Origin: Sinorhizobium sp. 8-89
Lineage (GTDB): Bacteria; Pseudomonadota; Alphaproteobacteria; Rhizobiales; Rhizobiaceae
Length of the DNA: 64,000 nt
NCBI RefSeq assembly: GCF_030124325.1
Contig: NZ_JASKLR010000006.1
Span: forward strand, 76,387-140,386
Reading direction: 5' to 3'
A model generated the notes under the pieces. That model saw only the letters and a program-made list of their open reading frames with translations, did no database searches and was not told where the DNA came from. Each line of letters starts with the position of its first letter. Position 1 is the stretch's first letter. A program made the position numbers and the translations under genes. Of the stretch, positions 164 to 48,579 are shown piece by piece.

Positions 164-177
164 TTGACCGGCGTCAA
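164..177. promoter_or_regulatory. FixK/Fnr-type box, distal site for groEL
   Basis: The sequence is TTGACCGGCGTCAA, a perfect TTGAC-N4-GTCAA palindrome. It lies 57 bp upstream of a second box and may bind a second activator dimer. Confidence 0.7.
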
Positions 178-220
178 AGATGATTCCGTGACGCTGGGGC
201 CTTTTGCACGCCGATGTCGT

Positions 221-234
221 TTGATGCGCGTCAA
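221..234. promoter_or_regulatory. FixK/Fnr-type box, proximal site for groEL
   Basis: TTGATGCGCGTCAA. With the usual class II spacing (box centre at -41.5) transcription would start near 269, 16 bases before the groEL ATG at 285. Confidence 0.75.
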
Positions 235-284
235 AGCGAGCCTCCCGCCCTGTGCTACAAAAGCATCGAACGGAGGATGAAGTC

Positions 285-1907
285 ATGGCTCACAAGCAGG
301 TCCTTTTCCATTCGGCTGCCCGGGAGAAGATCTTGAAGGGCGCTTCGCAATTGGCCGATGCCGTTCGGGTCACACTCGGGCCTCGCTCGAAGGCCGTTCT
401 GATCGAAAGAAAGTGGGGGTCGCCGATCGTCTGCAATGATGGGGTTACGATCGCCAAGGAATTCGACCTGAAAGATCCCGAAGAAAATCTCGGCGCGCGC
501 ATGCTGCGCCAGGCGGCGGAGAAGACGGGGGAAATTGTCGGCGACGGGACCACCACATCGACGATTCTTGCCCATACGATTTTCGCCGATGGGTTGCGCA
601 ATGTCGTTGCCGGCGCAAGCGCGATTGACATCAAGCACGGGCTCGACCGAGGCGTCAAACGAGCTGTCGCCGAACTCAAGAAGAACTCACGGCCCGTCTC
701 CGAGAAGCGTGAAAAAGAACAGGTGGCGACGATTTCGGCCCACAACGACGCACAGATCGGCTCATTGGTCGGAGACGCCATGGAAAAGGTGGGCGACGAC
801 GGAGTCATCAGCGTCGAGGAATCGAAAACGACCGAGACGGTCCTCGAAGTCGTGGAGGGCATGCAATTCGATCGCGGTTATCTTTCTCCCTATTTCGTCA
901 CCGATGCTGAACGAATGGAGGTCGTTCTCGAAAGCGCCACCATCCTCCTGTTCGATCGCAAGATCACTTCGCTCAAGGATTGCGTGGAACTCCTGGAGGC
1001 CGTTGCGAAAACCGGAACGCCACTGCTCATCATCGCGGAGGATGTGGAAACCGAGGCGCTTGCAACTCTGATCGTCAACCAGATGCGCGGAACGCTGCGC
1101 AACTGCGCCATCAAGGCGCCAGGATTCGGAGACCGACGCAAAGCCCTCTTGCAGGACATCGCCATACTCACGGGCGGGCAGCTTATCTCCGAGGAGCTGG
1201 GCATAAAGCTCGAAACGGTAACGCCCGAACAACTTGGCCGTGCCGAGCGGATCGTCATTACGAAAGATACGACCACCATCATTGGTGGGGCGGGAGGTAA
1301 AAAGGCCATCAGCGGCCGGGCGGAACAGATCCGCAAGGAAATCTCGACCACCACCAGCGACTACGACCGTGAAAAGCTCCAGGAGAGACTGGCGAAGCTT
1401 TCCGGCGGCGTCGCGGTGATCAAGGTGGGTGCAGCCACAGAAGCGGAGCTCAAAGCGAAGAAGGAAGCGCTCGATGACGCCATCAGCGCGACCAAGGCTG
1501 CCGTCGCGGAAGGCATCCTGCCGGGTGGCGGATTGGCCCTCCTGCGGTGCATAGCGGCCGTCTCAGAGGAGGAGGAAGCCTGCGAAGGCGATGAGCGCAC
1601 CGGCGTTCAGATCCTCAAGCGGGCACTGGAAATCCCGGCACGGCAGATCGCCGAAAACTCGGCAACCGACGGCGGCGTGGTGGTCGCGAAAATGCTCGAG
1701 GGAGAGGGCAGTTTCGGATATGACGCCGGCCGAAAGGTCTATGTCGACCTGGTCTCGGCCGGCATCATCGACCCTACCAAAGTGATCCGCGTCGCGCTCG
1801 AGAATGCGGTTTCGGTCGCAAGCGTGCTGTTGCTGACCGAAGCCACGATGACGGAACTTCCCGAGACGCCGAAGGAGGCGATAACCGAAGCCGCAATGCA
1901 ACCATAG
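285..1907 (+). CDS. groEL: 60-kDa chaperonin GroEL, stand-alone copy
   Basis: Group I chaperonin subunit, an ATP-driven cytoplasmic folding machine. The 540 residues cover the whole family length. The ATPase residues are visible: [15 protein letters not shown], and the aspartate before GILPGGG. The start is placed at ATG 285, preceded by CGGAGG at 271-276, because the reading frame from GTG 252 adds 11 residues that do not resemble GroEL. The C-terminus lacks the Gly-Gly-Met repeats of housekeeping GroEL and ends in an acidic, non-repetitive tail. No groES lies beside it, so it must use a GroES from elsewhere. Two FixK-like boxes precede it, which suggests low-oxygen induction. It is probably an accessory paralogue, as rhizobia carry several. 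Confidence 0.96.
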
Positions 1908-1950
1908 TTGCACCGCAGCTCGATCTCGCAGACGGTTGGAGAAAGAAATC

Positions 1951-2280
1951 ATGGAACTGACGGAGCGAGAGAAAGCGCTCGAAGAAAGGTACATCCTCGA
2001 CTTTGAGCGTTCTTTGAGAGTTCGCGAACGCCGAAACCGGCTGCTTGCCGGATGGGCGGCACGCGCGCTCGATAGATCCAACGCGACCGCTTACGCGGCG
2101 GAGATCGCTGAAGCCGGACGGGCCGAAGCTGGCGACGACGACGTCCTGCGCAAGGTGCTCCGGGATTTTGAAATCGCCGGAATCGCTGCGACCAGGGAAC
2201 AGCTAGAGGAAAAGATGCGGGCCCTGTTGTTTGTTGCCGCCGAACAACTAGACGCCCGAAGCAAAACGGAGAGGCGGTAG
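1951..2280 (+). CDS. DUF1476 family protein, F1-ATPase zeta-type inhibitor homologue
   Basis: A 109-residue, highly charged, mostly helical protein. The opening (EREKALEERY) and the block RRNRLLAGWAARAL match the DUF1476 family, whose studied alphaproteobacterial member is the zeta subunit that inhibits F1-ATPase. ATG 1951 is chosen because TTGGAG at 1936-1941 is a fair ribosome site; TTG 1936 is in frame but overlaps it. It sits 43 bp after groEL and is probably co-transcribed, so it may share the low-oxygen control. Inference: limits ATP hydrolysis when respiration falls. As a plasmid-type paralogue it may instead have another partner. Confidence 0.8.
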   Translation: MELTEREKALEERYILDFERSLRVRERRNRLLAGWAARALDRSNATAYAAEIAEAGRAEAGDDDVLRKVLRDFEIAGIAATREQLEEKMRALLFVAAEQLDARSKTERR

Positions 2281-2293
2281 GTCTGCCCGCCTC

Positions 2294-4678
2294 CTACGTC
2301 GCTCTCCCACCCTTTTCCGCCGCTGCCACGGTCCGGCTCACGGCGACAAAACTGTCCGGCGTGACCGAGATCGAGTCGATGCCACATTCGACAAGAAATG
2401 CCGCGAAGTCGGGATGATCGCTTGGCGCCTGGCCGCAAAGGCCGATCTTGGCTCCGGCCTTCCGAGCTTCCGTGATGACTTTGAAGATCATCCACTTCAC
2501 GGCTTCGTCCTGCTCGTCGAACAATGAAGCGAGTTCCTCGGAATCCCTGTCGACACCAAGGGTCAACTGAGTGAGATCGTTCGAGCCGATCGAGAATCCA
2601 TCGAAGAACCTCGCGAAATCTGCCGCGAGGATGACGTTGGACGGTATCTCGCACATCACATAGATCTGCAGCCCGTCGACGCCTCGCTGAAGACCGTTTG
2701 CGGCCATCACCTCAAGGACCTTCTCAGCCTCTTTCACCGATCGGCAGAACGGGATCATGACGACGACGTTCCTGAAGCCCATCGTCTCACGCAGCCGCTT
2801 GATCGCCCGACACTCAAGTGCAAAGCCGTCACGATATTTCGGCGAGTAGTAGCGAGATGCGCCGCGAAAGCCGATCATCGGGTTCTCTTCTTGCGGCTCG
2901 AACTCGGCGCCGCCGCATAGCCCCGCATATTCATTCGTCTTGAAATCGCTCATGCGCACGATGATCGGCCTGGGATAGGCAACTGCAGCGAGACGCGCCA
3001 GCCCGCGCGAAAGCTCGTCGACGAAATAGTCGGTCCGCTCCGCATAGCCCGATGTCAGAGCGGCGATCTTCTCTCTTGCCGATTGGTCGCGCAGCCGGTC
3101 GAAGTGCACGAGGGCCATGGGATGGATCTGTATCGCATTGCTGATCACGAATTCCATGCGCGCAAGGCCAATGCCGTCGGCCGGGAGTCTCCACCAGCGG
3201 GATGCCGATTGCGGATCGGCAAGGTTCAGCATGACCTTCGTTCGCGTTCCCGCGATGTCGGTGAGGCTGATCGTCTCCGCCTTGTATTCGGCCACCCCTT
3301 CGTAAATGCGGCCCTCGTCGCCCTCGGCGCAGGACACGGTGATGATCGCGCCCGTAGCCAAGAGCCTCGTCGCGTTCTCCGCGCCGACGATTGCGGGCAG
3401 GCCAAGCTCGCGACTGACGATCGCCGCATGCGAGGTGCGTCCCCCATGATCGGTGACGATGGCAGAGGCGCGCTTCATGAGCGGCACCCAGTCCGGGTCG
3501 GTGGTTGTGGTCACCAGAATAGAGCCGTCACTGAACTTGCCGATGTCGTTTGGATGCTCGATGAGGCACACGGGACCCGCGGCGATGGCACTGCCTATTG
3601 CAAGACCCTTTGCCAGCAGGCGCCCCTTCTTGCCGATCTGATAGGTTGGAAGTTTATCGGAGGCTGCTCTTGCCTGTACGGTTTCGGGCCGAGCCTGCAC
3701 GATGCGGAGGTGGCCGTCGCGGCCGTCTTTGGCCCATTCAATGTCCATGGGGCAGCCGTAATGCTTCTCGATCGCTATCGCCCAGCGGGCGAGCTGAAGA
3801 ATCTCCTCATCTGCGAGGACAAGCTTGGTCTGTTCTTCTCGGGAAGTGGAGACACCCCGGGTCGGCTCGAAACTGTTGCCGTAGGTGAGCTTACTGGTCT
3901 TCGTGCCGCATCTCTTCTGGATAATCGGCACAAGGGCACTGTCGCTCAGCAGCGGTTTGAACACGCGGTATTCGTCGGGATCGACAGTTCCTTTGACAAC
4001 ATATTCGCCAAGACCCCAGGCCGCATTGATCAGAACAATCTTATCAAAGCCGGTCTCGGTCTCGATCGAAAACATGACGCCTGCGCCGCCGAGATCAGAA
4101 CGGACCATTTCCTGGACGCCGACGGACAAAGCCACCTTCATGTGATCGAAGCCATTTACCTTGCGGTAGCTGATGGCTCGATCGGTAAAGAGCGAGGCAT
4201 AGCAACGGCGACAGGCGTGCATCAGTGCCCTCTCCCCGACAACGTTGAGAAAGCTCTCCTGCTGTCCGGCAAAGCTCGCCGTCGGGAGGTCCTCCGCGGT
4301 TGCACTGGAACGCACTGCAACCGAGGACGCGTCGACATCGAGCCTGCGCGACAGCGTACGATAGGCCGCGATTATTTCGGCTTCGATCTCGGCGGGCCAG
4401 CGACCCCGGAGAATATTCTCGCGTATTGCGGCGCCCGTGTCGGCGAGGGTGGCTTCACCTGCCTTCCATTTCTCAAGCAGGGCAGTGATCGGTGCCCGCA
4501 AGTCATTCGCATCGACAAAGTTCCAATAGGCCTCCGCTGTCGTCGCAAAACCGCTCGGCACCTTGATGCCATGCGCGGAAAGTCCGGAGATCATCTCGCC
4601 GAGTGACGCATTCTTGCCGCCCACACTGGCGATATCGCGCCGCGTCACATCCTCGAACCAGATAATTGAAGCGACCAT
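2294..4678 (-). CDS. ppsA: Phosphoenolpyruvate synthase (pyruvate, water dikinase)
   Basis: Makes PEP from pyruvate and ATP. The 794 residues hold the N-terminal ATP-grasp-like domain (GGKNASLGEM near residue 20), the swivelling domain with the phospho-histidine in GGRTSHAAIVSREL, and the C-terminal PEP-binding barrel with GSNDLTQLTLG and the cysteine of LCGQAPSD. ATG 4678 is chosen because GGGAGG lies just upstream; the GTG at 4684 is in frame but within the ribosome site. It is divergent from the glucokinase-like gene, with one FixK-like box between them. Its 3' end converges with the DUF1476 gene, 13 bp apart. Expected role: gluconeogenic PEP supply or energy adjustment in low oxygen. Confidence 0.93.
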   Translation of the reverse strand: MVASIIWFEDVTRRDIASVGGKNASLGEMISGLSAHGIKVPSGFATTAEAYWNFVDANDLRAPITALLEKWKAGEATLADTGAAIRENILRGRWPAEIEAEIIAAYRTLSRRLDVDASSVAVRSSATAEDLPTASFAGQQESFLNVVGERALMHACRRCYASLFTDRAISYRKVNGFDHMKVALSVGVQEMVRSDLGGAGVMFSIETETGFDKIVLINAAWGLGEYVVKGTVDPDEYRVFKPLLSDSALVPIIQKRCGTKTSKLTYGNSFEPTRGVSTSREEQTKLVLADEEILQLARWAIAIEKHYGCPMDIEWAKDGRDGHLRIVQARPETVQARAASDKLPTYQIGKKGRLLAKGLAIGSAIAAGPVCLIEHPNDIGKFSDGSILVTTTTDPDWVPLMKRASAIVTDHGGRTSHAAIVSRELGLPAIVGAENATRLLATGAIITVSCAEGDEGRIYEGVAEYKAETISLTDIAGTRTKVMLNLADPQSASRWWRLPADGIGLARMEFVISNAIQIHPMALVHFDRLRDQSAREKIAALTSGYAERTDYFVDELSRGLARLAAVAYPRPIIVRMSDFKTNEYAGLCGGAEFEPQEENPMIGFRGASRYYSPKYRDGFALECRAIKRLRETMGFRNVVVMIPFCRSVKEAEKVLEVMAANGLQRGVDGLQIYVMCEIPSNVILAADFARFFDGFSIGSNDLTQLTLGVDRDSEELASLFDEQDEAVKWMIFKVITEARKAGAKIGLCGQAPSDHPDFAAFLVECGIDSISVTPDSFVAVSRTVAAAEKGGRAT

Positions 4679-4763
4679 TTCCACCTCCCGTGTTGAGACT
4701 GTCCGCTCGCGGCCACCGCACCGACAAACAGCGACACCCTATGCTTTCACGACATCGGTGACC

Positions 4764-4777
4764 TTGACGTCCATCAA
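4764..4777. promoter_or_regulatory. FixK/Fnr-type box shared by ppsA and the glucokinase-like gene
   Basis: TTGACGTCCATCAA. The class II rule puts the starts of transcription near 4729 (minus, 51 bases before ppsA) and near 4812 (plus, 20 bases before GTG 4832). Confidence 0.75.
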
Positions 4778-4831
4778 AGTGCGAGGGGCTAGCCTGCCGC
4801 ATACTCTCCACAAAACATGTTGGAGGCCGAG

Positions 4832-5779
4832 GTGAATAAATTCACACATGACGCTGTTGTGGCCGACGTTAGCGAGACCCACATTCGCTTCGCCGTCGTC
4901 CACACTGACAGGCTGACGATCGAAGATTATGTGCAGTTCGGAAAGAACGTATTTGGATCCGTGGTCGAGGCGCTGGCCGCTTACCGGCGCTCTCTACCAA
5001 CCTGTCCGCCTGCCTTGGGGATCACAATCGCAAACAGCGAATTGTTGCCCGTCAGTGATTTGGAACGCAGGCTCGCCGAAGGACATGCAGGTGAATGGCA
5101 CCACATTCAAATCATCGGTTCCATCGACGCGCTTTCGCTCATCTTGCCCGATCTCGCTCCGCATGACGTCGTCCAATTCGGAGGGGCAGAGGCCCGTCGC
5201 GACGCGGCGAAGGCTGTCGCAAGCATTGGCGACGCACTCGGCGTAGGGGTACTCGCTCAGATCAATGGCTCTTGCCCACAGTTCCATGCTCACGCCGGAA
5301 GCATATCCTTTGCACCGCGAACGCAAGAAGAGCTTGATATCCTGGAGCGCATTCGCTGCGATACGGACCATGTTTCCGTTGAGCACGTGTTGTCAGACCG
5401 GGGACTGGCGCACCTTTACCAGATCCTGCGTGAGAGTTCGGGACAGCCAGTGCGCTCCCTTCAGGCCACTGACATTGTCATCGCCGGCTTGCAGGGGGAC
5501 GATCGCTGCGCGACGACGGCGATAAACTATTTTGCCACTTGGCTCGGCAGATTTGCAGGCGATATGGCTCTCCTCTATGACGCACGAGGCGGAGTCTATC
5601 TGTGGGGCCCGATACTGCGGAAGATGGAGAAACTCCTCCACAACGGTGCCTTCCGCCTCGCGTTCGAGGCGAAGGGAAGACGATCGGACTGGCTGACGCG
5701 AATACCAGTCTTCCTGATCCGAAGCGAGGACGCGATCCTGCGCGGCGCGGCAAAGGCCCTCAATCAACAGATGGACTAA
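4832..5779 (+). CDS. Glucokinase-family protein lacking catalytic motifs (probable pseudoenzyme)
   Basis: A 315-residue protein that follows the bacterial Glk fold from end to end. It has SFAPRTQEELDILERI, HVSVEHVLS and a C-terminal IPVFLI block. Key motifs are changed: the phosphate-binding DIGGTN loop reads DVSETH (residues 12-17), the catalytic NDF motif is replaced within IIGSIDAL (94-101), and the EGGH glucose motif reads HAGSI (154-158). GTG 4832 is preferred because GGAGG lies at 4822-4826 and the predicted transcript starts near 4812; ATG 4817 would leave almost no leader. The open frame is intact, so a non-catalytic role (regulator or sugar sensor) is likelier than decay. It is divergent from ppsA. 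Confidence 0.72.
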   Translation: MNKFTHDAVVADVSETHIRFAVVHTDRLTIEDYVQFGKNVFGSVVEALAAYRRSLPTCPPALGITIANSELLPVSDLERRLAEGHAGEWHHIQIIGSIDALSLILPDLAPHDVVQFGGAEARRDAAKAVASIGDALGVGVLAQINGSCPQFHAHAGSISFAPRTQEELDILERIRCDTDHVSVEHVLSDRGLAHLYQILRESSGQPVRSLQATDIVIAGLQGDDRCATTAINYFATWLGRFAGDMALLYDARGGVYLWGPILRKMEKLLHNGAFRLAFEAKGRRSDWLTRIPVFLIRSEDAILRGAAKALNQQMD

Positions 5780-6277
5780 CCTCTCCGCTCTCGGAGCTTG
5801 ACGGAAACGCCGCTTGACTGGTCAGTGTGGGGAAGTGTGCCGAAATCTCTGTCGTGTCTGCTCTCTGCGGCCTGTGGTGGGGCAGCCGTTGATCGGCAGC
5901 ACGCTGAAAAAGCGATGTAATTATGAGCGCTATGATGATCAGAAGCAACCTGCTCGTGACGGTTGCCAAATTAGCGTGAACAGGTTGTGCCTGGTCATTG
6001 TGGATTTCCGCTGACCTTCACCGTCGCCCACGAACGACGGCTACCGCATACAAGCACATCACACATGCAAGGAGCGCACCATGTTCTCGGTCAAAAAGGG
6101 AATTGGGGCGGGTCCGTCTTTGACGCGCATCAATGAGGCTGGTGCCACATAGGGCTCTAATAAACACATCTGGCTGGGACACGCGCGAGAACGCGGCAGG
6201 CCCAGCCGGGGGGCTTTGCGGTGCTTGCAACGAGCGCCCCGATGAGCCTGCAACCCTGCTTTGAAGGAGAACCAGCC
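5780..6277. other. 498-bp intergenic region before hsp20
   Basis: No convincing gene. It carries one FixK-like box at 6120-6133. A 23-codon frame from ATG 6081 spans that box and is probably chance. Confidence 0.5.
6120..6133. promoter_or_regulatory. FixK/Fnr-type box upstream of hsp20
   Basis: TTGACGCGCATCAA. Predicted transcription start near 6168, giving a leader of about 110 bases before the hsp20 ATG. Confidence 0.75.
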
Positions 6278-6805
6278 ATGGCTGAACCTGAGACCAAACT
6301 GCCCATCAAGTCGGAAGAGAAAGCCGTCGAGCATCGCGGCGAGTCGTGGCTCCCGTTCGAAAGCCTACGATCTGAAATCGACCGCCTGTTCGACGACTTC
6401 GCTCCGACCCTGTGGCATCGCCCCTTTGCGTCCGCATTCATGCGTCGGATGCCGCGGCAGTCGGAGTTCAAGATCGCGCCCGCCGTCGACGTCGCGGAGA
6501 CAGAGAAGAGTTACGAAATTACCTGCGAACTGCCAGGGATGGAGGAAAAGGACATAGAGGTAGCGGTCTCCAGTGGAACCTTGACGATCCGGGGTGAGAA
6601 GCAGGAGCAGAAAGAAGAGAAGAACAAGGACTACGTCGTTTCGGAGCGTCGCTACGGCTCATTCCAAAGAGCCTTCCGATTGCCTGACGGCGTTGATGCT
6701 GACAAGATCGCCGCCAATTTTTCGAAGGGCGTTCTTTCCGTGACCCTGCCAAAGACCCCCGAAGCGCAGCAGAGCGAGCGCAAAATCCAGATCAAACCAG
6801 CCTAG
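6278..6805 (+). CDS. Small heat-shock protein, Hsp20/alpha-crystallin family
   Basis: ATP-independent holdase chaperone of the cytoplasm. The 175 residues hold a short N-terminal arm, the alpha-crystallin domain (from about KIAPAVDVAETEKSYEI to LPKTPEAQ) and the C-terminal I-x-I anchor (IQI, third to sixth last residues). ATG 6278 has AAGGAGA upstream; the frame is open from 6221 but those residues are not family-like. It is preceded by a FixK-like box and followed 92 bp later by uspA, with a strong hairpin between. Confidence 0.94.
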   Translation: MAEPETKLPIKSEEKAVEHRGESWLPFESLRSEIDRLFDDFAPTLWHRPFASAFMRRMPRQSEFKIAPAVDVAETEKSYEITCELPGMEEKDIEVAVSSGTLTIRGEKQEQKEEKNKDYVVSERRYGSFQRAFRLPDGVDADKIAANFSKGVLSVTLPKTPEAQQSERKIQIKPA

Positions 6806-12638: not shown

Positions 12639-13970
12639 TTATTCGAGTTCCAGCCGGTACGCGGTACCGGCCCGCAGGATGTCGACGGAAGCGCTCTCTT
12701 GTGTGCTTTCCAGAACACTTCGGATCTGTTCGACTGAGGTGGGTGGCTGGCCGTTGATGGCCGTCAGATAATCGCCTGTTCTCAGCCCCATCGAATAGGC
12801 GTCGCTTCCCGATGCAACGTCGACGACGACCGCCCCCGCCGGCGCGCAAGCCGGCGAGCCATTGGCGGATGGAAACTCGACGACGACCGATTCCTGGCCC
12901 GAGTCCAGGTCGCGCCGAGCGGCCGCATCAGAAAGCATGACATTCACCTGCTGCAACTTTTCCCCCCGACGAACATCAAGCGTAATTCGCGTGTTCGGCG
13001 AAAGCAGGCTGATCGCATTCCTGAAAGCTGCGTCCGTCGGGAAGGTGCGGCCATCCAGTGCGACGATAATGTCGCCGAGGCGCACGCCTTGTCGTTCCGC
13101 CGGCGAATTGCAGACGAGCTCATTCACGACAAATTTTTGCGTCTCAGCGGCACTGCCAGGCCGAATATCGGCGGCGCCCGTGACCGAGAGGCCAAGCCAC
13201 CCACGCCTGTATTCGCCGTGGGCGATCAGCTCCCGCGCGATTTGCATGGCGATATCGGACGGAATCGCAAAGCCGATGCCGGTACTCGCTTCGTCTGGCG
13301 CAGGAATCCCGCGTGCAATGCCGATCAACTCGCCAGAGGCATTGACCAGCGCACCGCCTGAATTGCCTGGGTTAATGGCCGCATCGGTCTGGATGTAGTC
13401 CTGGTATTCATCGGCACCGAGGCCGGAACGGCCCAAACCGCTGATGATGCCAAAGGTCGCCGTTTGCGTCAGGCCCAAAGGACTGCCCACCGCAATGACA
13501 AAATCACCGACCTTCAGTTCGGATGAACGTCCCCATTTGACCGAGGAAAGGCTTGGTGCCTCGACCTTGACCACCGCGAGATCGGTCGGCGCATCCTCCC
13601 CAATCCTGTCGGCCTGGAATACCCTTCCGTCAGCAAGCTTCACGGACACATCGTCAGCGTCTGCAACAAGGTGACGGCTCGTGATGATGTAGCCGTTCTC
13701 GTGATCGATAATCACCCCCGATCCCGTCGTAGTCACACCAGTTTGCACAACAACCACATCGTCGGGAAGACCCAGGATTCTCCGCACATTCGGATCATCG
13801 AGCATGTCGGCTCTGAAAATCCCGCTGCTGGCTGTGCGGATACTGACGACCGCCGGTTGTACCCGCCGTAACACCGCGGACACGCCCGCTTCGATTTCGG
13901 TCGCTCCGGCGGCCCCACCCAAGCTGTTAAGTAGCGCGGCCAGGGCTAGAACGGTTGAGATCTTGAGCAT
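12639..13970 (-). CDS. HtrA/DegP-like periplasmic serine protease
   Basis: A 443-residue trypsin-like protease with a signal peptide (MLKISTVLALAALLNS...GAAGA). The triad is visible: His in TSRHLV, Asp in TDLAVV, Ser in GNSGGAL. Two PDZ domains follow (from about RRGWLGLSV and from VVVDVASGSDA). ATG 13970 is chosen because the signal peptide begins there; the frame is open further up but would bury it. A perfect FixK-like palindrome at 14027-14040 puts the transcript start near 13992, 22 bases before this ATG. Its role is envelope protein quality control. Confidence 0.93.
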   Translation of the reverse strand: MLKISTVLALAALLNSLGGAAGATEIEAGVSAVLRRVQPAVVSIRTASSGIFRADMLDDPNVRRILGLPDDVVVVQTGVTTTGSGVIIDHENGYIITSRHLVADADDVSVKLADGRVFQADRIGEDAPTDLAVVKVEAPSLSSVKWGRSSELKVGDFVIAVGSPLGLTQTATFGIISGLGRSGLGADEYQDYIQTDAAINPGNSGGALVNASGELIGIARGIPAPDEASTGIGFAIPSDIAMQIARELIAHGEYRRGWLGLSVTGAADIRPGSAAETQKFVVNELVCNSPAERQGVRLGDIIVALDGRTFPTDAAFRNAISLLSPNTRITLDVRRGEKLQQVNVMLSDAAARRDLDSGQESVVVEFPSANGSPACAPAGAVVVDVASGSDAYSMGLRTGDYLTAINGQPPTSVEQIRSVLESTQESASVDILRAGTAYRLELE

Positions 13971-14026: not shown

Positions 14027-14040
14027 TTGATGCGCATCAA
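14027..14040. promoter_or_regulatory. FixK/Fnr-type box upstream of the HtrA gene
   Basis: TTGATGCGCATCAA, a complete 14-bp palindrome identical to the classical TTGAT-N4-ATCAA consensus. Confidence 0.8.
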
Positions 14041-15959: not shown

Positions 15960-15973
15960 TTGATGCGGATCAA
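15960..15973. promoter_or_regulatory. FixK/Fnr-type box upstream of the MBL-fold gene
   Basis: TTGATGCGGATCAA. It lies in the gap between the OTC-like gene end (16045) and the preferred start at 15898. Confidence 0.75.
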
Positions 15974-17205: not shown

Positions 17206-17219
17206 TTGACTCTCATCAA
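17206..17219. promoter_or_regulatory. FixK/Fnr-type box facing the OTC-like gene
   Basis: TTGACTCTCATCAA; predicted minus-strand transcript start near 17171, 80 bases before the ATG at 17091. Confidence 0.7.
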
Positions 17220-17240: not shown

Positions 17241-17254
17241 TTGATGGACATCAA
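17241..17254. promoter_or_regulatory. FixK/Fnr-type box facing the GNAT-like gene
   Basis: TTGATGGACATCAA; predicted plus-strand start near 17289, which leaves a leader of about 175 bases. Confidence 0.7.
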
Positions 17255-17962: not shown

Positions 17963-18703
17963 CTAAGCTTCGTGCCGCGTGGTCCTTGCGCTGAAAACAT
18001 AGCCGACTCCTCTGACCGACTTAATAAGGGCCGGCTGGTTGGGATCACGCTCGATCTTTCTTCGCAAACGGGCGATCTGTGCGTCGATCGTTCGGTCGAA
18101 AGGTTCGAGATTACGGCCTCGTGTCAGATCCATAAGCAATTCGCGCTGCAAGACACGGCCAGCGTGCTTCACCAGTACGCAAAGCATGTCGAACTCGCCG
18201 GTCGTCAGCGGTATCTCTCGTCCGTCATCTGACAGCAATTGGCGACGACCGACATCGAGACGCAGCCCCTCGAAACGGTAGATTTCTGACTGAGGATCGC
18301 CGACGCTCGACAATGACCGAGGTTGCCGGCGACGAAGAACACCCCTGACGCGCGCCAGGACTTCCCGAAGATGGAAGGGTTTCGCGATGTAGTCGTCGGC
18401 ACCCACCTCCAGCCCGACAATCCGATCGACGACGTCGTTGCGACCAGTCAACATGATGATCGGTACGTCCGAGCGCGCGCGTATATCTCGCGCAAGCGTC
18501 AATCCGTCCTCGCCGGGCAGCACGAGGTCGAGCAGAATGATGTCGGCCGATTGTTTGTCGAGGCACTCACGCATCTCGCCCCCATCGCCGGCAAGACTGA
18601 CGCGGTACCCCTCTTCTTCGAAGTACCGCGACAGCATCTGCCGGATCCGCGAGTCGTCATCGACGACGAGAATGTGCTCGGGCAAGGTCGGTGCATGCGC
18701 CAT
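17963..18703 (-). CDS. OmpR-family two-component response regulator
   Basis: A 246-residue regulator. The receiver domain shows the acidic pair (VVDDD near 14-18), the phospho-acceptor Asp in ILLDLVLPGEDG, the Thr of MLTGR and the Lys of AKPFH. A winged-helix DNA-binding domain follows, ending with SVRGVGYVFS. It is divergent from the FixK-like regulator across about 140 bp. The hybrid kinase at 19616-21184 is the nearest candidate partner, though orphan pairing elsewhere is possible. Confidence 0.92.
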   Translation of the reverse strand: MAHAPTLPEHILVVDDDSRIRQMLSRYFEEEGYRVSLAGDGGEMRECLDKQSADIILLDLVLPGEDGLTLARDIRARSDVPIIMLTGRNDVVDRIVGLEVGADDYIAKPFHLREVLARVRGVLRRRQPRSLSSVGDPQSEIYRFEGLRLDVGRRQLLSDDGREIPLTTGEFDMLCVLVKHAGRVLQRELLMDLTRGRNLEPFDRTIDAQIARLRRKIERDPNQPALIKSVRGVGYVFSARTTRHEA

Positions 18704-18843
18704 GAATCAATCCCAGACGGTGCTGTTCCCTCCAAGCGCCGTTACACTCTGTTACAATATCATACCAATTTTCGCACGCGTGTCGTCGTGTGATTACGCC
18801 CTGGCGTTCAACTCTTACCATCAACGAAGGTGGAGGGAAGGTC

Positions 18844-19590: not shown

Positions 19591-19615
19591 GGGCGGCGGG
19601 GCAGAAAGGAACGAC

Positions 19616-23826: not shown

Positions 23827-23931
23827 GGGACGTTCCTGTCGGGCAATCAGAGTGTCTAAGGGTTAGGATGGCACTGCCGCGAGCGCGAATGCATTGAGGA
23901 GAGTCAATTTCCAGGCAGGGATTGCCTCGCT

Positions 23932-23945
23932 TTGAGCGCGATCAA
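23932..23945. promoter_or_regulatory. FixK/Fnr-type box between mgtA and the acyl-CoA synthetase
   Basis: TTGAGCGCGATCAA (one half TTGAG). Predicted starts are near 23980 (plus, 19 bases before ATG 23999) and 23897 (minus). Confidence 0.65.
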
Positions 23946-26698: not shown

Positions 26699-26708
26699 CC
26701 GGGATCAA
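26695..26708. promoter_or_regulatory. FixK/Fnr-type box overlapping the synthetase stop codon
   Basis: TTGACCGGGATCAA; its TGA is the stop codon of the preceding gene (26696-26698). Predicted start near 26743, 31 bases before the uspA ATG. Confidence 0.75.
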
Positions 26709-27663: not shown

Positions 27664-27733
27664 GCACTCGACCGATTCAAGACTGCAGCACTGGCGCTGC
27701 AGTGCCACGCGGGAGCTTCTTGACCGTGATCAA
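27664..27733 (+). repeat. Relic of the synthetase 3' end plus promoter, from tandem duplication
   Basis: The segment around 27671-27733 (CGATTCAAG...CTGGCGCTGCAG...GGGAGCTTCTTGACC) repeats the segment 26641-26708 that encodes the last codons of the acyl-CoA synthetase/GNAT gene and the overlapping box. The copied coding end is out of context, so the duplicated unit was gene-end, promoter and uspA. Confidence 0.75.
27720..27733. promoter_or_regulatory. FixK/Fnr-type box upstream of the second uspA
   Basis: TTGACCGTGATCAA; predicted start near 27768, 33 bases before ATG 27801. It is the duplicated partner of the box at 26695-26708. Confidence 0.75.
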
Positions 27734-28692: not shown

Positions 28693-29148
28693 TCATGTCT
28701 CACGTTCGTATGCGGCACGGCCGGTCATTTCGTCGATATCGACGCAGAAGAAGACATGCTGCGAAGCGGCGGCTATCTCCGGTTTGCCCGGCTTCAGCCC
28801 GCCCGGCTCCCACCAATTTGGCCGCGCCTCGAGTAGCGACCAGGCATGTATGCACTCTTGGTGCCACTGCCCCTTAGACGGCAGCTCCTGGTAACGGCCG
28901 AACACAAGGACGCTTTTCCACTGTCGCTCACCTGAAAACTCTTCGATTTCAAGGCACACATGCGGGTTCTCGCGCATCCACTCGATCTTTTGGCCAGGCA
29001 TGGAAAAGCCGTAGAGGCATTTCCCGGCGAAGGCATAGGTGATGGGCACGATATACGGCCTGTCTTCCTTGCAGCAGGCAAGACGAGCCACGTGACCTGT
29101 CTGAACCACGCTGTTGCATTCGTGACGGGACATTTCCTTGATAAACAT
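28693..29148 (-). CDS. Pyridoxamine 5'-phosphate oxidase-like flavin-binding protein
   Basis: A 151-residue split-barrel protein of the PPOx/FMN-binding superfamily. Visible features are HVARLACCKEDRPYIVPITYA near the N-terminus, typical of the NimA/PPOx-like subgroup, and IEWMRENPHVCLEIEEF. Members bind FMN, F420 or haem and often act in redox stress. ATG 29148 follows AAAGGACAGACC; the frame opens at 29253 but includes the promoter. A box at 29203-29216 would start transcription near 29168. Confidence 0.85.
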   Translation of the reverse strand: MFIKEMSRHECNSVVQTGHVARLACCKEDRPYIVPITYAFAGKCLYGFSMPGQKIEWMRENPHVCLEIEEFSGERQWKSVLVFGRYQELPSKGQWHQECIHAWSLLEARPNWWEPGGLKPGKPEIAAASQHVFFCVDIDEMTGRAAYERET

Positions 29149-29202: not shown

Positions 29203-29216
29203 TTGATGTGCCTCAA
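29203..29216. promoter_or_regulatory. FixK/Fnr-type box between the PPOx-like and BON genes
   Basis: TTGATGTGCCTCAA (one half degenerate, CTCAA). Class II spacing fits both directions: near 29168 and near 29251. Confidence 0.65.
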
Positions 29217-29284: not shown

Positions 29285-29962
29285 ATGAACAAGGACGTTC
29301 GACTGCGCCAGGACATTCTGGACGAACTTGAATATGAGCCGAGTATCGATGCTGCCAATATCGGCGTTGCCGTCGAGGACGGAATCGTCACACTTACCGG
29401 GCACGTCCGCAGCTATGCGGAAAAACACGCCGCGGAACGCATCGCCGAACATATGAAGGGCGTTCGAGCAATCGCGGAGGAGATCGAGGTGCGCCTACCG
29501 GAGCACAAGAAAACCGCCGATGACGAAATTGCCGGCCGCGTTCTGAAAATCCTCGCTTGGGGAGCTGCGATTTCCGCCCCTGAGGACATCCACGTGAAGG
29601 TCGAAAAAGGTTTCGTCACGCTTGAGGGCACCGTCGATTGGCATTTCCAGCGCTCTGCGGCCGAGAACTCGGTTCGAGTGCTGACGGGCGTCACTGGCAT
29701 CGACAACCAGCTCAGGATCCGCCCAAGGATGAATGTGGTGGATGTCAGGCATGGCATCAAGGAAGCCTTGAAACGCAACGCGCAGACCGAAGCCGAAAAC
29801 ATCGATGTGGAGGTCTCGGGCAGTCACGTCATATTGCGCGGAACGGTGCAGAGCCTGCGAGCACGCGTCATGGCGGAACGCGCTGCCTGGTCAGCTCCGG
29901 GCGTGACTGCCGTCGAAGACCACTTGAGGATCGAGGATGCTCGAGTGCGCTTGGGTGCCTGA
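29285..29962 (+). CDS. BON-domain protein with three BON repeats
   Basis: A 225-residue protein made of three consecutive BON domains (about 5-72, 78-147 and 155-220), each with a G-x-V-T/I-L-x-G-x-V strand (GIVTLTGHV, GFVTLEGTV, SHVILRGTV). BON domains are thought to bind phospholipid surfaces. No signal peptide is seen, unlike OsmY, so it is probably cytoplasmic. ATG 29285 follows GGTGGAGGAG. Confidence 0.88.
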   Translation: MNKDVRLRQDILDELEYEPSIDAANIGVAVEDGIVTLTGHVRSYAEKHAAERIAEHMKGVRAIAEEIEVRLPEHKKTADDEIAGRVLKILAWGAAISAPEDIHVKVEKGFVTLEGTVDWHFQRSAAENSVRVLTGVTGIDNQLRIRPRMNVVDVRHGIKEALKRNAQTEAENIDVEVSGSHVILRGTVQSLRARVMAERAAWSAPGVTAVEDHLRIEDARVRLGA

Positions 29963-40938: not shown

Positions 40939-41247
40939 TTACTCCAACTCAAAGCGCGCAAGCTTCTTCCGACTGGTATGGTCGCTGGCAGCGCCGATGA
41001 GCCGGTCTCGTTCTCTTGCAGCTTCAGAAAACCGATTGGGAGCCTGCAGGCGCGCACTCAGCCAGCATGTTCTCCCCTGTGGCAACGAGGTCGCTCGAAT
41101 GCTGCACCGGGCCGGATCGTTCGAGATAACTCCACCAGAGGCTCGCACTGGCACATTCGAGTTTGAGCTTGATCAAGGAGTCTTCCCCATCGGTGTAGCA
41201 TAATGTTGCGTATCGGAGCCCAGATCCGCATGCCAGGAGGATCACAA
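40939..41247. other. 309-bp intergenic region
   Basis: No gene is recognised. The TTGATCAA at 41169-41176 lacks the 4-base spacer of a FixK-like box. Frames on both strands look like chance. Confidence 0.4.
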
Positions 41248-45539: not shown

Positions 45540-45600
45540 GATCGTCCTTCTCGAGAAGACACCAGCTGGGCATGCATACGGTAGTTCTCCCGCGCGTGTA

Positions 45601-45614
45601 TTGATATGCGTCAA
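45601..45614. promoter_or_regulatory. FixK/Fnr-type box upstream of the ferric reductase-like gene
   Basis: TTGATATGCGTCAA; predicted minus-strand start near 45566, 27 bases before ATG 45539. The promoter is intact although the gene is broken. Confidence 0.7.
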
Positions 45615-45758
45615 CGGCCCTTTCACGAGGACAGCGCCAAGCCAACTGCACATGGGCGTAAACGCCACGGAGTGAAAGAGTGCACCCGCTCGGCCCGTAT
45701 GCTTGGCGGGCGTAAAACGCCGCCGAGAGGCAGAGTTTTCCTGAAGCGGCGCCCTGCG

Positions 45759-45772
45759 TTGACCGACGTCAA
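45759..45772. promoter_or_regulatory. FixK/Fnr-type box upstream of the ADH-GNAT fusion
   Basis: TTGACCGACGTCAA; predicted plus-strand start near 45807, 40 bases before ATG 45847. Confidence 0.75.
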
Positions 45773-45846
45773 AGCTCAACCGCAGCGGCGCGTGCACAAT
45801 CAGTAAAGTCCACAACCGATCGCAAATAGTGCGAAGGAGAAACTTG

Positions 45847-47475
45847 ATGAAGGCTCTCGTCTACGAAGGACCGGGACGGAAATTCCTTGCGGAACGGCCG
45901 ATGCCCACGATCGCCACGGCGACCGACGCCATCGTAAAGATGACGAGGACCACGATCTGCGGCACCGACCTGCACATCCTCAAGGGTGACGTGCCGTCCT
46001 GCGCGCCAGGCCGCATCCTCGGCCATGAAGGCGTGGGGATCGTCGAGGAGACGGGCGCCGGAGTGACGCAGTTCACCAAGGGAGCCCGCGTCCTGATCTC
46101 CTGCATCTCCTCCTGCGGCAAGTGCGACTATTGCCGACGCGGTATGTATTCCCACTGCACCACCGGCGGCTGGATTCTCGGCAACACGATCGACGGGACC
46201 CAGGCCGAATATGTCCGCATCCCGCATGCCGACACCAGCCTTTATCCGATCCCGCAGGGCGCCGACGAGGAAGCGCTTGTCATGCTAAGCGATATTCTCC
46301 CCACAGGCTTCGAATGTGGCGTGCTGAACGGCAAGGTCCAGCCGGGCGGCACGGTCGCCATCGTCGGCTCCGGGCCGATTGGGCTGGCGGCGCTGCTAAC
46401 GGCACAGTTTTTTTCTCCGGCCGAGATCATCATGGTCGATCTCGACGAGAACCGTCTCGAGGTGGCGAAACGCTTCGGCGCCACGCAGACGCTCAGGGCG
46501 AGCGGCGATGACGCCGTGCAGCAGGTTCTGGCGCTGGCTGGAGGTAAGGGCGTCGACACCGCGATCGAGGCGGTCGGCATTCCTGTCACTTTCGATCTTT
46601 GCCAGGAGATCGTCGCGCCAGGCGGCGTCATCGCCAATATCGGTGTCCACGGCGCAAAGGCCGATCTGCATCTCGAAAAGCTGTGGTCGCAGAACATCGC
46701 GATCACCACGCGGCTGGTGGATACGGCCACGACGCCGATGCTCCTGAAGACCGTGCAGGCGGGCAAGATCGACCCGAAAAAGCTGATCACGCATCGCTTC
46801 AGCCTCGATCGGGTTCTCGATGCCTACGAGACTTTTTCCCATGCCGCAAGCACGCAGGCATTGAAGGTCATCGTCGAGATCGCCGTGGATGCGCTTCCGG
46901 CGCGGACGACCGAAGAGCTGGGCATGGTCGGCTTGTCCGCATCGGGGGCTGCCGACGTCTGGAGTTGCGATCTCCTGACCCGAACCGGGCTCGTGCTCCA
47001 TGTTCAACAGGTCCGCCCCGAGGACGAGACGCTCTTGGCGGAATTCTTCGCCCATGTGACGCCTGAAGACCTGCGCTTCCGTTTTCTGGGCGGTGTTCGC
47101 GAGGTGAGCCACGAGCGTGTCGTAGCCATGACGAGGGTCGATCACAATTTGACGGAGAACTTCCTTGCCTTTGCCGACGGTCACAAAGCGATCGCTGCAA
47201 CGGCGATGGTTGTCTGCGATCCGTCTATGGAAAAGGCAGAGGTGGCGATCTCCGTTCGAGCCGAGGACAAGCACAAGGGCATCGCCTGGGAATTGCTGCG
47301 GCATGTCGCCCGCTATGCGCAGGCACTCGGCGTCAAGACACTGGAATCGATCGAAAGCCGGGAAAACCGCGAAGCTATCGAACTCGAACGGGAACAGGGC
47401 TTTGTCGCGGTCCCCTACCCAGACGACCCGACCCTCATACTCATACGCAAGGAACTTCATCGCCTAAAGTCCTGA
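45847..47475 (+). CDS. Zinc alcohol dehydrogenase fused to a C-terminal GNAT domain
   Basis: A 542-residue fusion. Residues 1-345 are a medium-chain dehydrogenase with the catalytic-zinc Cys (TICGTDLHIL) and His-Glu (GHEGVG), four structural-zinc cysteines (CGKCDYCRRGMYSHC) and the NAD loop GSGPIGLAALL. Residues about 370-540 form a GNAT-like domain (VRPEDETLLAEFF, LRFRFLGG, KHKGIAWELL, LESIESREN). That domain is of the same type as the tail of the acyl-CoA synthetase at 23999-26698. ATG 45847 follows GAAGGAG. A FixK-like box lies 75 bp above. The acyltransferase may modify the dehydrogenase, use it for substrate channelling, or be a silent regulator. Confidence 0.9.
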   Translation: MKALVYEGPGRKFLAERPMPTIATATDAIVKMTRTTICGTDLHILKGDVPSCAPGRILGHEGVGIVEETGAGVTQFTKGARVLISCISSCGKCDYCRRGMYSHCTTGGWILGNTIDGTQAEYVRIPHADTSLYPIPQGADEEALVMLSDILPTGFECGVLNGKVQPGGTVAIVGSGPIGLAALLTAQFFSPAEIIMVDLDENRLEVAKRFGATQTLRASGDDAVQQVLALAGGKGVDTAIEAVGIPVTFDLCQEIVAPGGVIANIGVHGAKADLHLEKLWSQNIAITTRLVDTATTPMLLKTVQAGKIDPKKLITHRFSLDRVLDAYETFSHAASTQALKVIVEIAVDALPARTTEELGMVGLSASGAADVWSCDLLTRTGLVLHVQQVRPEDETLLAEFFAHVTPEDLRFRFLGGVREVSHERVVAMTRVDHNLTENFLAFADGHKAIAATAMVVCDPSMEKAEVAISVRAEDKHKGIAWELLRHVARYAQALGVKTLESIESRENREAIELEREQGFVAVPYPDDPTLILIRKELHRLKS

Positions 47476-47972
47476 TCGAAGACCGGCTGGGAGGTCGACC
47501 TCACTCTGTGTGGGGGCTCACTCGCCGTCGGGGATGATGCCGTCATGGGCGCGTCTTCGAACGAATACGTGCGCCAGGGAACGGCCGTCAAATGGGCCGC
47601 CCGGCGGCAGTGCTGACGCACTCCTCGAGTTCGCTGAAGGTGTGATGGAGGTGAGGTAGCCTCGATGCTCCCCCTCTTCACCGGTCACTGGTCCGCAGCA
47701 GCGGCAGCAAAGGAAAATTGAAGTGGTCTGAACAGCCGATCGTCATGATGCGATCGGAGCCTAGCAATCAACGCCTTTGGCGAGTCAAGCGGCCGGGCGA
47801 TTCCATCTGCGGTCGTTCCGATCGTGATCGATTCATCCACCAACATGGGGCCGCAAGCCGGGCGCGCGCGCTGTCTCGTCTACCAGAGCGCGCCGGTAAA
47901 CGGTTCCGGGCTAATTCGTAGAGGGGCGGTGGGTAAGGAGACCGCGACAATATCTCCGCCGCGACAGTCCGC
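47476..47972. other. 497-bp intergenic region without recognisable gene
   Basis: No family match in either strand. A 67-codon frame from TTG 47718 has AAAGGAAAA upstream but no recognisable composition. The palindrome GAGGTCGACCTC near 47500 is too short to assign. Confidence 0.4.
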
Positions 47973-48182
47973 CTAGGCTTCAGGCACGTTCTCTTCCTGA
48001 CGCGAGCGTCTATGCGCCGCGTTGTCGCGGCCATAATGAACCATGCGCAGGAGCGGACAAGCGAGTACGAGCAGATAAGGAAGATAGCCGAGTACCTGCA
48101 GCCGATATTCTGAAAGGAGTAGAAATCCTGAACCAAAAAGTGCCCCGACGGTCAGCTCGATAACTGTCTTCGAACGCCACAT
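47973..48182 (-). CDS. Small DUF2933-family membrane protein
   Basis: A 69-residue protein with one or two helices (ELTVGALFGSGFLLL and LGYLPYLLVLACPLLR), the second carrying the P-Y-L-L-V-L-A-C-P pattern of DUF2933. ATG 48182 follows GAGGGAATCGCC. The boxes at 48425 and 48566 lie about 250 bp away; control by them is possible but unproven. The function is unknown. Confidence 0.72.
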   Translation of the reverse strand: MWRSKTVIELTVGALFGSGFLLLSEYRLQVLGYLPYLLVLACPLLRMVHYGRDNAAHRRSRQEENVPEA

Positions 48183-48424
48183 TGGCGATTCCCTCGCGGT
48201 GGCGCCGACTTGGCGCGAGCTCGGTTGTGTTTTGCAGGTCAACAATGTGAACTCCCGTCCGTCCCGCTCAGTTCGGCTTCGGGATGATACGCCTCTTCTG
48301 CAGGGCTTGGTGCCGCGCGCAAACGTGGCGCGCTTGCCAGCCGGATGGTTTGTGGTGTCGACATTTCGCCTCTTCTCTGGCCAGTAACGACCTACGAGGA
48401 TATGGCTGCCGAGATATTTACATC

Positions 48425-48438
48425 TTGACGCGGATCAA
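48425..48438. promoter_or_regulatory. FixK/Fnr-type box, target unclear
   Basis: TTGACGCGGATCAA. Minus-strand start would be near 48390 (toward DUF2933), plus-strand near 48473. Confidence 0.65.
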
Positions 48439-48565
48439 AGTGGACCGCCCCAGTCGCGCCGTCCGGCACTTCAGCCGCAATCGCTGATCAGTATCCATCG
48501 AATCCGACTTCTCTAGAGCGACACACTCGATAGCCGCCCCAGTGGACTACAATCACTGCGTGTCT

Positions 48566-48579
48566 TTGACACCCGTCAA
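48566..48579. promoter_or_regulatory. FixK/Fnr-type box upstream of a small ORF
   Basis: TTGACACCCGTCAA; predicted start near 48614, 34 bases before ATG 48648. Confidence 0.7.

What the first reader, a model, noticed from the sequence alone, without database searches (positions are those of the whole stretch)
164..48579. A dense FixK/Fnr regulon packed into one island
Eighteen TTGAY-N4-RTCAA-type sites occur from 164 to 48579, nearly all in intergenic DNA, besides one weak site. Most sit 15 to 40 bases above the predicted leader of a gene with class II geometry, and several positions decide the gene start (groEL, glucokinase-like, MBL-fold, HtrA). The island also encodes a FixK-type regulator whose recognition helix (E..SR) suits TTGA half-sites, and a haem-PAS kinase. 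That the regulator, its sensor and a set of targets are clustered is unusual; classical FixK targets are scattered.
Basis: partly seen in the sequence, partly recalled or inferred. Interest (0 to 1): 0.82.

Follow-up and report, generated by a model that had tools for sequence, protein, structure and literature searches.

The report
Self-wired low-oxygen regulon in rhizobia
A stretch of a soil rhizobium's genome carries what looks like its own oxygen sensor, relay protein and gene activator next to dozens of stress and energy genes marked with that activator's DNA tag; the general arrangement is known from related rhizobia, but related plasmids suggest the whole package may be passed between species.

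Summary
All 18 TTGA-N6-TCAA sites lie as stated (14 strict TTGAY-N4-RTCAA); shuffles give 0.69. The island is larger than the window shows: 29 sites in 86 kb, starting about 32 kb upstream. All 18 window sites are intergenic; 15 lie 35-160 nt above a gene start. A -10-like TAnnnT recurs 21-24 nt past the box, as in class II promoters. Boxes are conserved above the same genes (21 of 21 orthologues on S. fredii pSF45436d).

The trio is the known hFixL-FxkR-FixK cascade. Likely mechanism: hFixL to FxkR to fixK, then class II activation of chaperones, proteases, Usp proteins and energy enzymes at low oxygen; not tested experimentally.

"Unusual clustering" is only partly right: S. meliloti pSymA has a published FixK-motif-dense 120-kb region (PMC5596199), and Rhizobium plasmids show 8-13 boxes in 41 kb. 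What I did not find described is a 201-kb, predicted conjugative plasmid with 46 boxes, with signs of transfer between species. New member of a known kind.

The parts
164..177 (.). FixK/FNR-type box TTGACCGGCGTCAA; likely serves the leftward Usp gene (C49:75662-76486, start at about window 100)
221..234 (.). box TTGATGCGCGTCAA, 50 nt above groEL
285..1907 (+). GroEL (Cpn60) target gene
   Evidence: Pfam; start
2294..4678 (-). PEP synthase, box 85 nt upstream
4764..4777 (.). box TTGACGTCCATCAA between PEP synthase and glucokinase
4817..5779 (+). glucokinase family, box 39 nt upstream
6120..6133 (.). box TTGACGCGCATCAA, 144 nt above Hsp20
6278..6805 (+). Hsp20
12639..13970 (-). HtrA-like protease (Trypsin_2 + PDZ), box 56 nt upstream
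14027..14040 (.). box TTGATGCGCATCAA
14303..15898 (-). MBL-fold beta-CASP/RMMBL protein, box 61 nt upstream
15960..15973 (.). box TTGATGCGGATCAA
16045..17091 (-). ornithine carbamoyltransferase, box 114 nt upstream
17206..17219 (.). box TTGACTCTCATCAA (first of a pair)
17241..17254 (.). box TTGATGGACATCAA (second of the pair; a pair at similar spacing recurs in several relatives)
17963..18703 (-). FxkR-like OmpR-type response regulator (REC + Trans_reg_C)
   Evidence: 70% identical to the regulator in the cascade region of a R. leguminosarum plasmid
18741..18756 (+). K-box GTTACACTCTGTTACA between fxkR and fixK; the only exact K-box in the genome
18844..19590 (+). FixK-type Crp/Fnr activator, no N-terminal Cys cluster, E..SR recognition helix
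19571..21184 (+). hFixL: FixL-type haem-PAS + HisKA/HATPase + receiver domain
21226..23826 (-). P-type cation ATPase, box 67 nt upstream
23894..23907 (.). box TTGAGGAGAGTCAA (loose)
23932..23945 (.). box TTGAGCGCGATCAA (loose)
23999..26698 (+). ADP-forming acyl-CoA synthetase-like protein fused to GNAT, box 53 nt upstream
26695..26708 (.). box TTGACCGGGATCAA, overlaps the end of the upstream gene by 4 nt
26774..27601 (+). universal stress protein, box 65 nt upstream
27720..27733 (.). box TTGACCGTGATCAA
27801..28634 (+). universal stress protein, box 67 nt upstream
28693..29148 (-). orthologue of genes annotated pyridoxamine 5'-phosphate oxidase family, box 54 nt upstream
   Evidence: name only from annotation of relatives
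29203..29216 (.). box TTGATGTGCCTCAA (loose), between divergent genes
29285..29962 (+). BON-domain protein, box 68 nt upstream
41163..41176 (.). box TTGAGCTTGATCAA (loose), 71 nt above a 96-aa gene (41248-41538)
45601..45614 (.). box TTGATATGCGTCAA, target unclear
45759..45772 (.). box TTGACCGACGTCAA, 74 nt above the ADH-GNAT fusion
45847..47475 (+). zinc alcohol dehydrogenase-GNAT fusion
48425..48438 (.). box TTGACGCGGATCAA, target unclear
48566..48579 (.). box TTGACACCCGTCAA, target unclear

Best explanation
The island is a locally wired low-oxygen regulon of the hFixL-FxkR-FixK type. Inferred mechanism: when oxygen falls, the haem-PAS hybrid kinase hFixL (19571-21184) phosphorylates the OmpR-type regulator FxkR (17963-18703). 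FxkR binds the single K-box (18741-18756) and turns on fixK (18844-19590). FixK, which has no iron-sulphur cluster of its own, binds the TTGA-N6-TCAA boxes as a dimer and activates the downstream genes as a class II activator, with the box centre near -41. The boxed products (GroEL, Hsp20, HtrA-like and FtsH-like proteases, four Usp proteins, BON and CBS proteins, a cation ATPase, glucokinase, PEP synthase, an ADP-forming acyl-CoA synthetase-like enzyme, ornithine carbamoyltransferase; PfkB in an apparent operon behind the CBS-BON gene) suggest a protein-quality and energy-sparing survival programme. Shown by sequence: the parts, their domains, the K-box, box enrichment, box-to--10 spacing and box conservation. 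Inferred: oxygen sensing, phosphotransfer, FixK binding and induction.
For: 18 boxes in the window against 0.69 in shuffles; 29 of 139 genome sites in 1.2% of the genome. Only gap 6 and only half-site TTGA stand out. TAnnnT 21-24 nt after the box: 14 hits in 4 offsets against 15 in 66 offsets on the island; 23 against 31 on pSF45436d; 7 against 2 on the pSmeSM11a stretch; 4 against 3 on the pSymA stretch; 43 against 43 in L009-L022. Box conservation: orthologues of boxed genes are boxed in 21 of 21 on pSF45436d, 11 of 11 on pSmeSM11a and 10 of 12 on pSymA, against 1 of 28, 1 of 19 and 0 of 15 for unboxed genes. Exact K-box once in the genome, and there exactly between fxkR and fixK; also beside fixK in 11 of 14 named relatives' loci, on pSymA and pSmeSM11a, S. 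medicae T10 and R. leguminosarum pSK01. Sensor PAS matches FixL haem PAS. FixK lacks the Cys cluster. Of 33 genus genomes, the 15 with this FixK at E <= 1e-60 have median 55 strict boxes and the 18 without have 38.5, p 2e-5. K-box and cascade function are published for R. etli and R. leguminosarum (PMC7888657, PMC4999443, passages).
Against: No expression or binding data for this organism. Two other FixK-like genes without an N-terminal Cys cluster (one near a FixL homologue, contig C7; one on C60) and a Cys-bearing FnrN-like gene (C21, with its own box) have the same TIETVSR helix and could read the same boxes. The adjacent cbb3 oxidase genes (55050-58530), a classical FixK target, have no such box. 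FixK and hFixL score below the curated cut-offs of the named NCBIfam FixK and FixL equivalogs (148 of 300; 263 of 850). An exact 12-base K-box somewhere in 7 Mb is not rare in itself (my estimate about 0.3 by chance; with one mismatch 2 were seen against 6 per strand in the reversed control); it is its place and conservation that count. In 3 of 14 named loci (L016, L017, L020) and on pSF45436d the K-box beside fixK is degenerate, 10 or 11 of 12; the S. medicae pSymA stretch has none even with one mismatch. Box conservation is weaker in some loci (L019 3 of 6, L020 7 of 10), and the two Usp genes partly share hits. 3 of 18 window boxes have no clear target. The -10 offsets were chosen after seeing the C49 profile, and the replicates are homologous promoters, not independent ones. 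The 15-v-18 genome comparison is partly circular, because the island carries both regulator and boxes, and 2 of the 18 genomes are under 90% complete.
Confidence: 0.74

Rival explanations
1. The boxes are genuine class II FNR-type sites, but the main reader in the cell is another regulator: the FixK near the FixL homologue on contig C7, the FixK-like protein on C60, or the FnrN-like protein with cysteines on C21. The island FixK is then auxiliary or redundant.
For: Three other Crp/Fnr proteins of the genome share the TIETVSR helix, and the C21 protein has N-terminal cysteines and a box above its gene. In R. [quoted passage not shown] Strict boxes elsewhere in the genome have nearly the same core and -10 spacing (9 hits at 21-24 against 16 in 66 offsets, 29 of 38 sites examined).
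Against: Box density follows the island FixK across the genus (partly circular), and the trio is kept with the boxed genes on several replicons.
Confidence: 0.2
2. The boxes answer mainly to a cue other than oxygen, such as nitric oxide (NnrR-type regulator) or carbon/nitrogen status, as proposed for the S. meliloti pSymA region.
For: In S. meliloti, motif-linked genes of the 120-kb region fall in PHB-cycle mutants under nitrogen limitation, and the NnrR consensus TTG-N8-CAAA may overlap the FixK one (PMC5596199, sections 15-18 read).
Against: The genes beside fixK are a FixL-type haem-PAS kinase and a response regulator, with a K-box between.
Confidence: 0.05
3. The sites are chance or structural palindromes without a regulatory role.
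For: Little: one of the 29 island sites (C49:44857) is coding and four window sites deviate from the strict form.
Against: Shuffles, gap and half-site controls, intergenic bias, -10 spacing and orthologous conservation.
Confidence: 0.01

Closest known systems
S. meliloti 1021 pSymA 120-kb region (SMa1077-SMa1297; PMC5596199, sections 15-18 read)
   Same: Overlaps the highest density of a FixK-like motif in that genome, Crp/Fnr genes inside it (SMa1141 and others), motifs mostly just upstream of genes. Orthologues of the trio and boxes lie in the 50-kb pSymA stretch that I fetched.
   Different: The published region also holds FixLJ, FixK1 and denitrification genes. The paper's text has no FxkR, hFixL or K-box (counts 0). 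In strain 1021 FxkR reads in two overlapping frames and in 2011 only residues 68-246 match in one piece, so it looks broken.
hFixL-FxkR-FixK(f) cascade of R. etli CFN42 and R. leguminosarum 3841 (PMC7888657 and PMC4999443, passages)
   Same: Hybrid FixL, OmpR-type FxkR, K-box above fixK, FixK without Cys cluster, anaerobox targets; genes clustered, one K-box shared by divergent fxkR and fixK. A R. leguminosarum plasmid (another strain) has the trio at 45-70% identity with a K-box and 13 boxes in 41 kb.
   Different: Here the boxed genes are mostly stress and energy genes rather than fixNOQP/fixGHIS, and the neighbouring fixNOQP lacks a box. Regulon sizes were not compared.
[quoted passage not shown] original paper not held)
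   Same: A localized, low-oxygen-induced gene set with six Usp genes, an alpha-crystallin and a phosphofructokinase; involved in anoxic persistence.
   Different: Another class of proteobacteria (recalled). A potential regulator named there, BCAM0049 (Anr/FixK-like), seems by its number to lie outside the locus (inference). Homology gene by gene was not tested.
DosR dormancy regulon of M. tuberculosis (PMC5309233 passages; PMC6127331 passages; PMC4082495 abstract in listing)
   Same: Haem sensor kinase and response regulator controlling Usp proteins, alpha-crystallin, PfkB, a metalloprotease and a ribosome-associated factor; counterpart families are in this island or annotated on pSF45436d (site-2 protease, HPF/RaiA).
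   Different: A different DNA-binding regulator and box (recalled), and nine separate blocks in the genome. A likeness in parts list only, not a tested homology.

Membership tests
hFixL-FxkR-FixK cascade | Hybrid FixL: haem-PAS, histidine kinase and receiver domain | tested here: met
   Pfam PAS, HisKA, HATPase_c, Response_reg; PAS aligns to FixL haem-PAS structures at E 1e-45 with the HD.Y and IIGI.R motifs; haem-ligand role of that His recalled
hFixL-FxkR-FixK cascade | OmpR-type response regulator FxkR next to it | tested here: met
   Response_reg + Trans_reg_C; best NCBIfam OmpR, 258.6 bits, below its cut-off 331; 70% identical to the regulator in R. leguminosarum pSK01. The characterized FxkR proteins themselves were not compared
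hFixL-FxkR-FixK cascade | K-box GTTACA-N4-GTTACA above fixK | tested here: met
   Exact, once in the genome; consensus from PMC7888657 and PMC4999443
hFixL-FxkR-FixK cascade | Oxygen binding, phosphotransfer, FxkR binding | not testable with these tools
   Needs biochemistry
FixK subgroup of Crp/Fnr | cNMP-like domain, Crp HTH with E..SR, no N-terminal Cys cluster | tested here: met
   a single Cys in the protein, not N-terminal
FixK (NCBIfam NF050806, equivalog) | Score above curated cut-off 300 | tested here: not met
   148.1 bits, though the best of 11 families; FixK-like by features, not this equivalog
FNR/FnrN (direct oxygen sensor) | N-terminal cysteines for a 4Fe-4S cluster | tested here: not met
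   Absent in the island FixK, present in the C21 homologue
Canonical FixL (NCBIfam NF041777) | Score above cut-off 850 | tested here: not met
   263 bits; a receiver domain follows the kinase
Class II FNR-type promoters | -10 element at fixed spacing that puts the box centre near -41 | tested here: met
   TAnnnT at 21-24 nt; transcript starts not measured
lxa locus | Orthologous genes induced by low oxygen | not tested
   Only passages of papers compared

The most novel reading that the evidence does not exclude
The whole regulon, meaning haem sensor, relay, activator and tens of ready class II promoters, is a transferable unit. It is kept linked because it moves between replicons and species on large conjugative plasmids and gives a new host a complete low-oxygen survival programme of the lxa/DosR kind, instead of being stitched gene by gene into the host's FixK network.
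Probability: 0.4. Interest if true: 0.65.

Novelty: new member of a known kind. Interest (0 to 1): 0.45.

Why it matters
It gives a concrete, testable wiring for a box-dense region whose S. meliloti counterpart was described without deciding which Crp/Fnr protein controls it (PMC5596199, sections 15-18). It also points to accessory rhizobial plasmids as carriers of a self-contained low-oxygen programme: pSF45436d has 46 boxes in 201 kb. If the unit moves whole, it is a clean system for asking how a regulon can be acquired in one step. The FxkR that looks broken in the laboratory strains 1021 and 2011 may be why this branch has drawn little attention there (inference).

Tried and rejected
Chance: rejected. 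Direct FNR-type oxygen sensing by the island FixK: rejected for lack of N-terminal cysteines. Canonical FixLJ-FixK: the trio has an OmpR-type regulator and a hybrid kinase, not FixJ. Autoregulation of fixK by a box: no box within 250 nt above fixK, fxkR or hfixL. Control of the neighbouring fixNOQP by a box: none found, only sites with 1-2 mismatches scattered through 54-60 kb. A distinct core sequence for island boxes: position 6 leans to G (0.59, against 0.28 at 29 other strict sites), too little to separate regulators. Replicon of C49: no RepC match on it, left open. Presence of nif: the strongest NifH-family matches are on C17 and C56, but that family also rings in controls, so nif is likely, not shown. 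One FxkR-like hit on a Magnetospirillum plasmid (52% identity) has 1 box in 41 kb and no FixK annotated nearby, so the dense arrangement does not simply follow this regulator type. Sass 2013 (PMC3721108) is not held. Zamorano-Sanchez 2012, Bobik 2006 and Stiens 2006 were not seen. Structure prediction and fold searches were not used.

Dropped rows: genes under 90 aa and hits with identity under 45% or starting after residue 40 were left out, where the box was allowed within 250 nt in the island and 300 nt in relatives. My gene caller missed the response regulator, which I put in by hand, and two spurious ORFs over it were removed. 9 of 38 strict sites outside C49 were not fetched. Only the first 50 sites were listed. 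One search listed 60 of 282 records, of which I opened 3.
Full report
Setting. The window is contig C49:76387-140386 of an unnamed 7.06-Mb genome. The 14 named relatives of the regulator found in genome contigs are all Ensifer/Sinorhizobium, 54-90% identical. C49 has no RepC match, so I do not say whether it is plasmid, chromid or chromosome.

Shuffled windows give 0.69 on average. The genome has 139 loose sites against 24 for the reversed pattern, and 63 strict against 2. On C49 the sites crowd between 44391 and 124952: 29 loose and 24 strict in 86 kb, 2 loose in the 40 kb before and 3 in the 180 kb after. Among 256 tetramer half-sites TTGA stands first (29 against 1.09 expected), and of gaps 0-15 only gap 6 is enriched.

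Where the sites sit. With my own gene calls all 18 window sites are centred in intergenic DNA, which is 16% of that stretch, and 15 of 18 lie 35-160 nt above a start codon (zone 8.7%). Over the island, 28 of 29 are intergenic and 20 of 29 are in the zone. 26 of 71 genes of at least 90 aa have a box within 250 nt, 16 of them at 50-75 nt.

Class II geometry. Looking both ways from each box, a TAnnnT hexamer is concentrated 21-24 nt past the box end: 14 hits in those four offsets against 15 in the other 66 (0.91 expected). That would place the box centre near -41. The offset range was chosen after the first profile, so its p value is not clean. The same offsets then stood out on pSF45436d (23 against 31), in the pSmeSM11a stretch (7 against 2), the pSymA stretch (4 against 3) and 14 relatives' loci (43 against 43), and among 29 of the 38 strict sites outside C49 (9 against 16). 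Many of these promoters are homologous, so they are not independent tests.

Conservation. Boxed genes keep a box in relatives: 21 of 21 orthologues on S. fredii pSF45436d, 11 of 11 in the S. meliloti pSmeSM11a stretch, 10 of 12 in the S. meliloti pSymA stretch. Orthologues of unboxed genes have one in 1 of 28, 1 of 19 and 0 of 15. In the 14 shorter loci the boxed figures run from 3 of 6 (L019) to all (7 of the 14 loci), the unboxed ones from 0 to 2 per locus. Usp paralogues partly share hits.

The regulators. 18844-19590 is a Crp/Fnr protein nearest, among solved structures, to the FixK2 of 4i2o, with TIETVSR in the recognition helix and no N-terminal cysteines. 19571-21184 is a hybrid kinase whose PAS domain matches FixL haem-domain structures (E 1e-45), followed by a kinase core and a receiver. 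17963-18703, divergent from fixK, is an OmpR-type response regulator. Between them lies GTTACACTCTGTTACA, the only exact K-box in 7.06 Mb. By my estimate about 0.3 such sites would be expected by chance in the whole genome; the point is that the one site lies in this intergenic stretch of about 140 nt and recurs in relatives. PMC7888657 and PMC4999443 (passages read) give GTTACA-N4-GTTACA as the FxkR site and describe hFixL-FxkR-FixK. In R. leguminosarum 3841 one K-box is shared by divergent fxkR and fixK, as here. The exact K-box stands beside fixK in 11 of 14 named loci and in the pSymA and pSmeSM11a stretches. It is degenerate in L016, L017, L020 and pSF45436d, has one mismatch in S. meliloti LMB1 pB, and is not found even with one mismatch in the S. 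medicae pSymA stretch. The R. leguminosarum plasmid pSK01 has hFixL, FxkR and FixK at 62, 70 and 45% identity, an exact K-box before fixK and 13 boxes in 41 kb; a R. phaseoli plasmid has FxkR at 70%, the end of hFixL and 8 boxes in 41 kb, no K-box in that stretch, which does not reach its fixK.

How it works, most likely. Low oxygen activates hFixL, which phosphorylates FxkR; FxkR at the K-box raises fixK; FixK binds the boxes and recruits polymerase in class II fashion. No box stands above the trio itself, which fits one-way control. The steps from oxygen to fixK rest on the published cascade; nothing here measures them. Other readers of the boxes are possible: two more FixK-like proteins (C7, C60) and a Cys-bearing FnrN-like protein with its own box (C21) share the helix. 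Box count does go with this FixK: 15 genus genomes with it have a median of 55 strict boxes, 18 without have 38.5, though the island itself supplies part of that difference and some genomes with it have few (37 and 38).

What the genes do. Boxed genes encode chaperones and proteases (GroEL, Hsp20, HtrA-like, FtsH-like), four Usp proteins, BON and CBS proteins, a cation ATPase, and enzymes of energy metabolism. A similar mix (Usp proteins, alpha-crystallin, phosphofructokinase) is noted for the lxa locus of B. cenocepacia and likened there to the DosR regulon (PMC6127331, passages). pSF45436d also has annotated site-2 protease, HPF/RaiA and hemerythrin-domain genes. This is a likeness of parts, not a homology test.

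Prior work. PMC5596199 (sections 15-18 read) found that a 120-kb part of S. meliloti pSymA overlaps the genome's highest density of a FixK-like motif, with Crp/Fnr genes inside, including SMa1141. It did not settle which regulator acts and discussed cyclic nucleotides. PMC3164228 (passages) reports microaerophilic, FixK-linked genes clustered in parts of pSymA. PMC4999443 (passages) counts S. meliloti among the species with hFixL-FxkR-FixKf orthologues. So the clustering and the cascade are of a known kind.

What may be new. The 201-kb S. fredii plasmid pSF45436d, predicted conjugative by PLSDB's typing, carries 46 boxes where other gaps average 1.9. PMC5991415 (passages) names this plasmid; its main text has no 'fixK' or 'microaerobic'. 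The accessory-plasmid copies of S. meliloti (pSmeSM11a) and S. medicae (T10) are 97.9% identical over 31 kb, while the pSymA copies of the two species are 89.1% identical over 21 kb; the S. meliloti pSymA copy is 94.6% identical to both accessory copies. The S. meliloti LMB1 copy is closer to S. saheli (89.1% over 19 kb) than to the two other S. meliloti copies (85.4%). This suggests transfer between species, but I measured no chromosomal baseline and built no trees. Searches for papers on such a plasmid-borne regulon showed none in their listings; most subscription papers are not held.

Noticed in passing
C49:61134-65533 (window -15252 to -10853): A second hFixL/response regulator/FixK set lies upstream in the same island; its FixK copy (59% identical) is interrupted by a TAA stop.
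   Followed up: partly
window 55050-58530: A cbb3 oxidase operon (fixNOQP-like) adjoins the island but has no TTGA-N6-TCAA box upstream.
   Followed up: partly
L029 (S. meliloti 1021 pSymA), about 25368-26104: The FxkR orthologue of strain 1021 reads in two overlapping frames, and in 2011 only residues 68-246 match in one piece, so it looks broken there.
   Followed up: no
window 37805-40141: A heavy-metal P-type ATPase with a C-terminal hemerythrin domain.
   Followed up: no
window 45847-47475 and 23999-26698: Two boxed enzymes, an alcohol dehydrogenase and an ADP-forming acyl-CoA synthetase-like protein, each carry a fused GNAT acetyltransferase domain.
   Followed up: no
pSF45436d about 101367 (L049:11367): The plasmid's exact K-box sits by a different Crp/Fnr gene pair, while the K-box at its FixK (152490) is degenerate, 10 of 12.
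   Followed up: partly
C49:40227-46370: Two adenylate/guanylate cyclase genes at the island's edge, one preceded by a boxed 156-aa gene.
   Followed up: no
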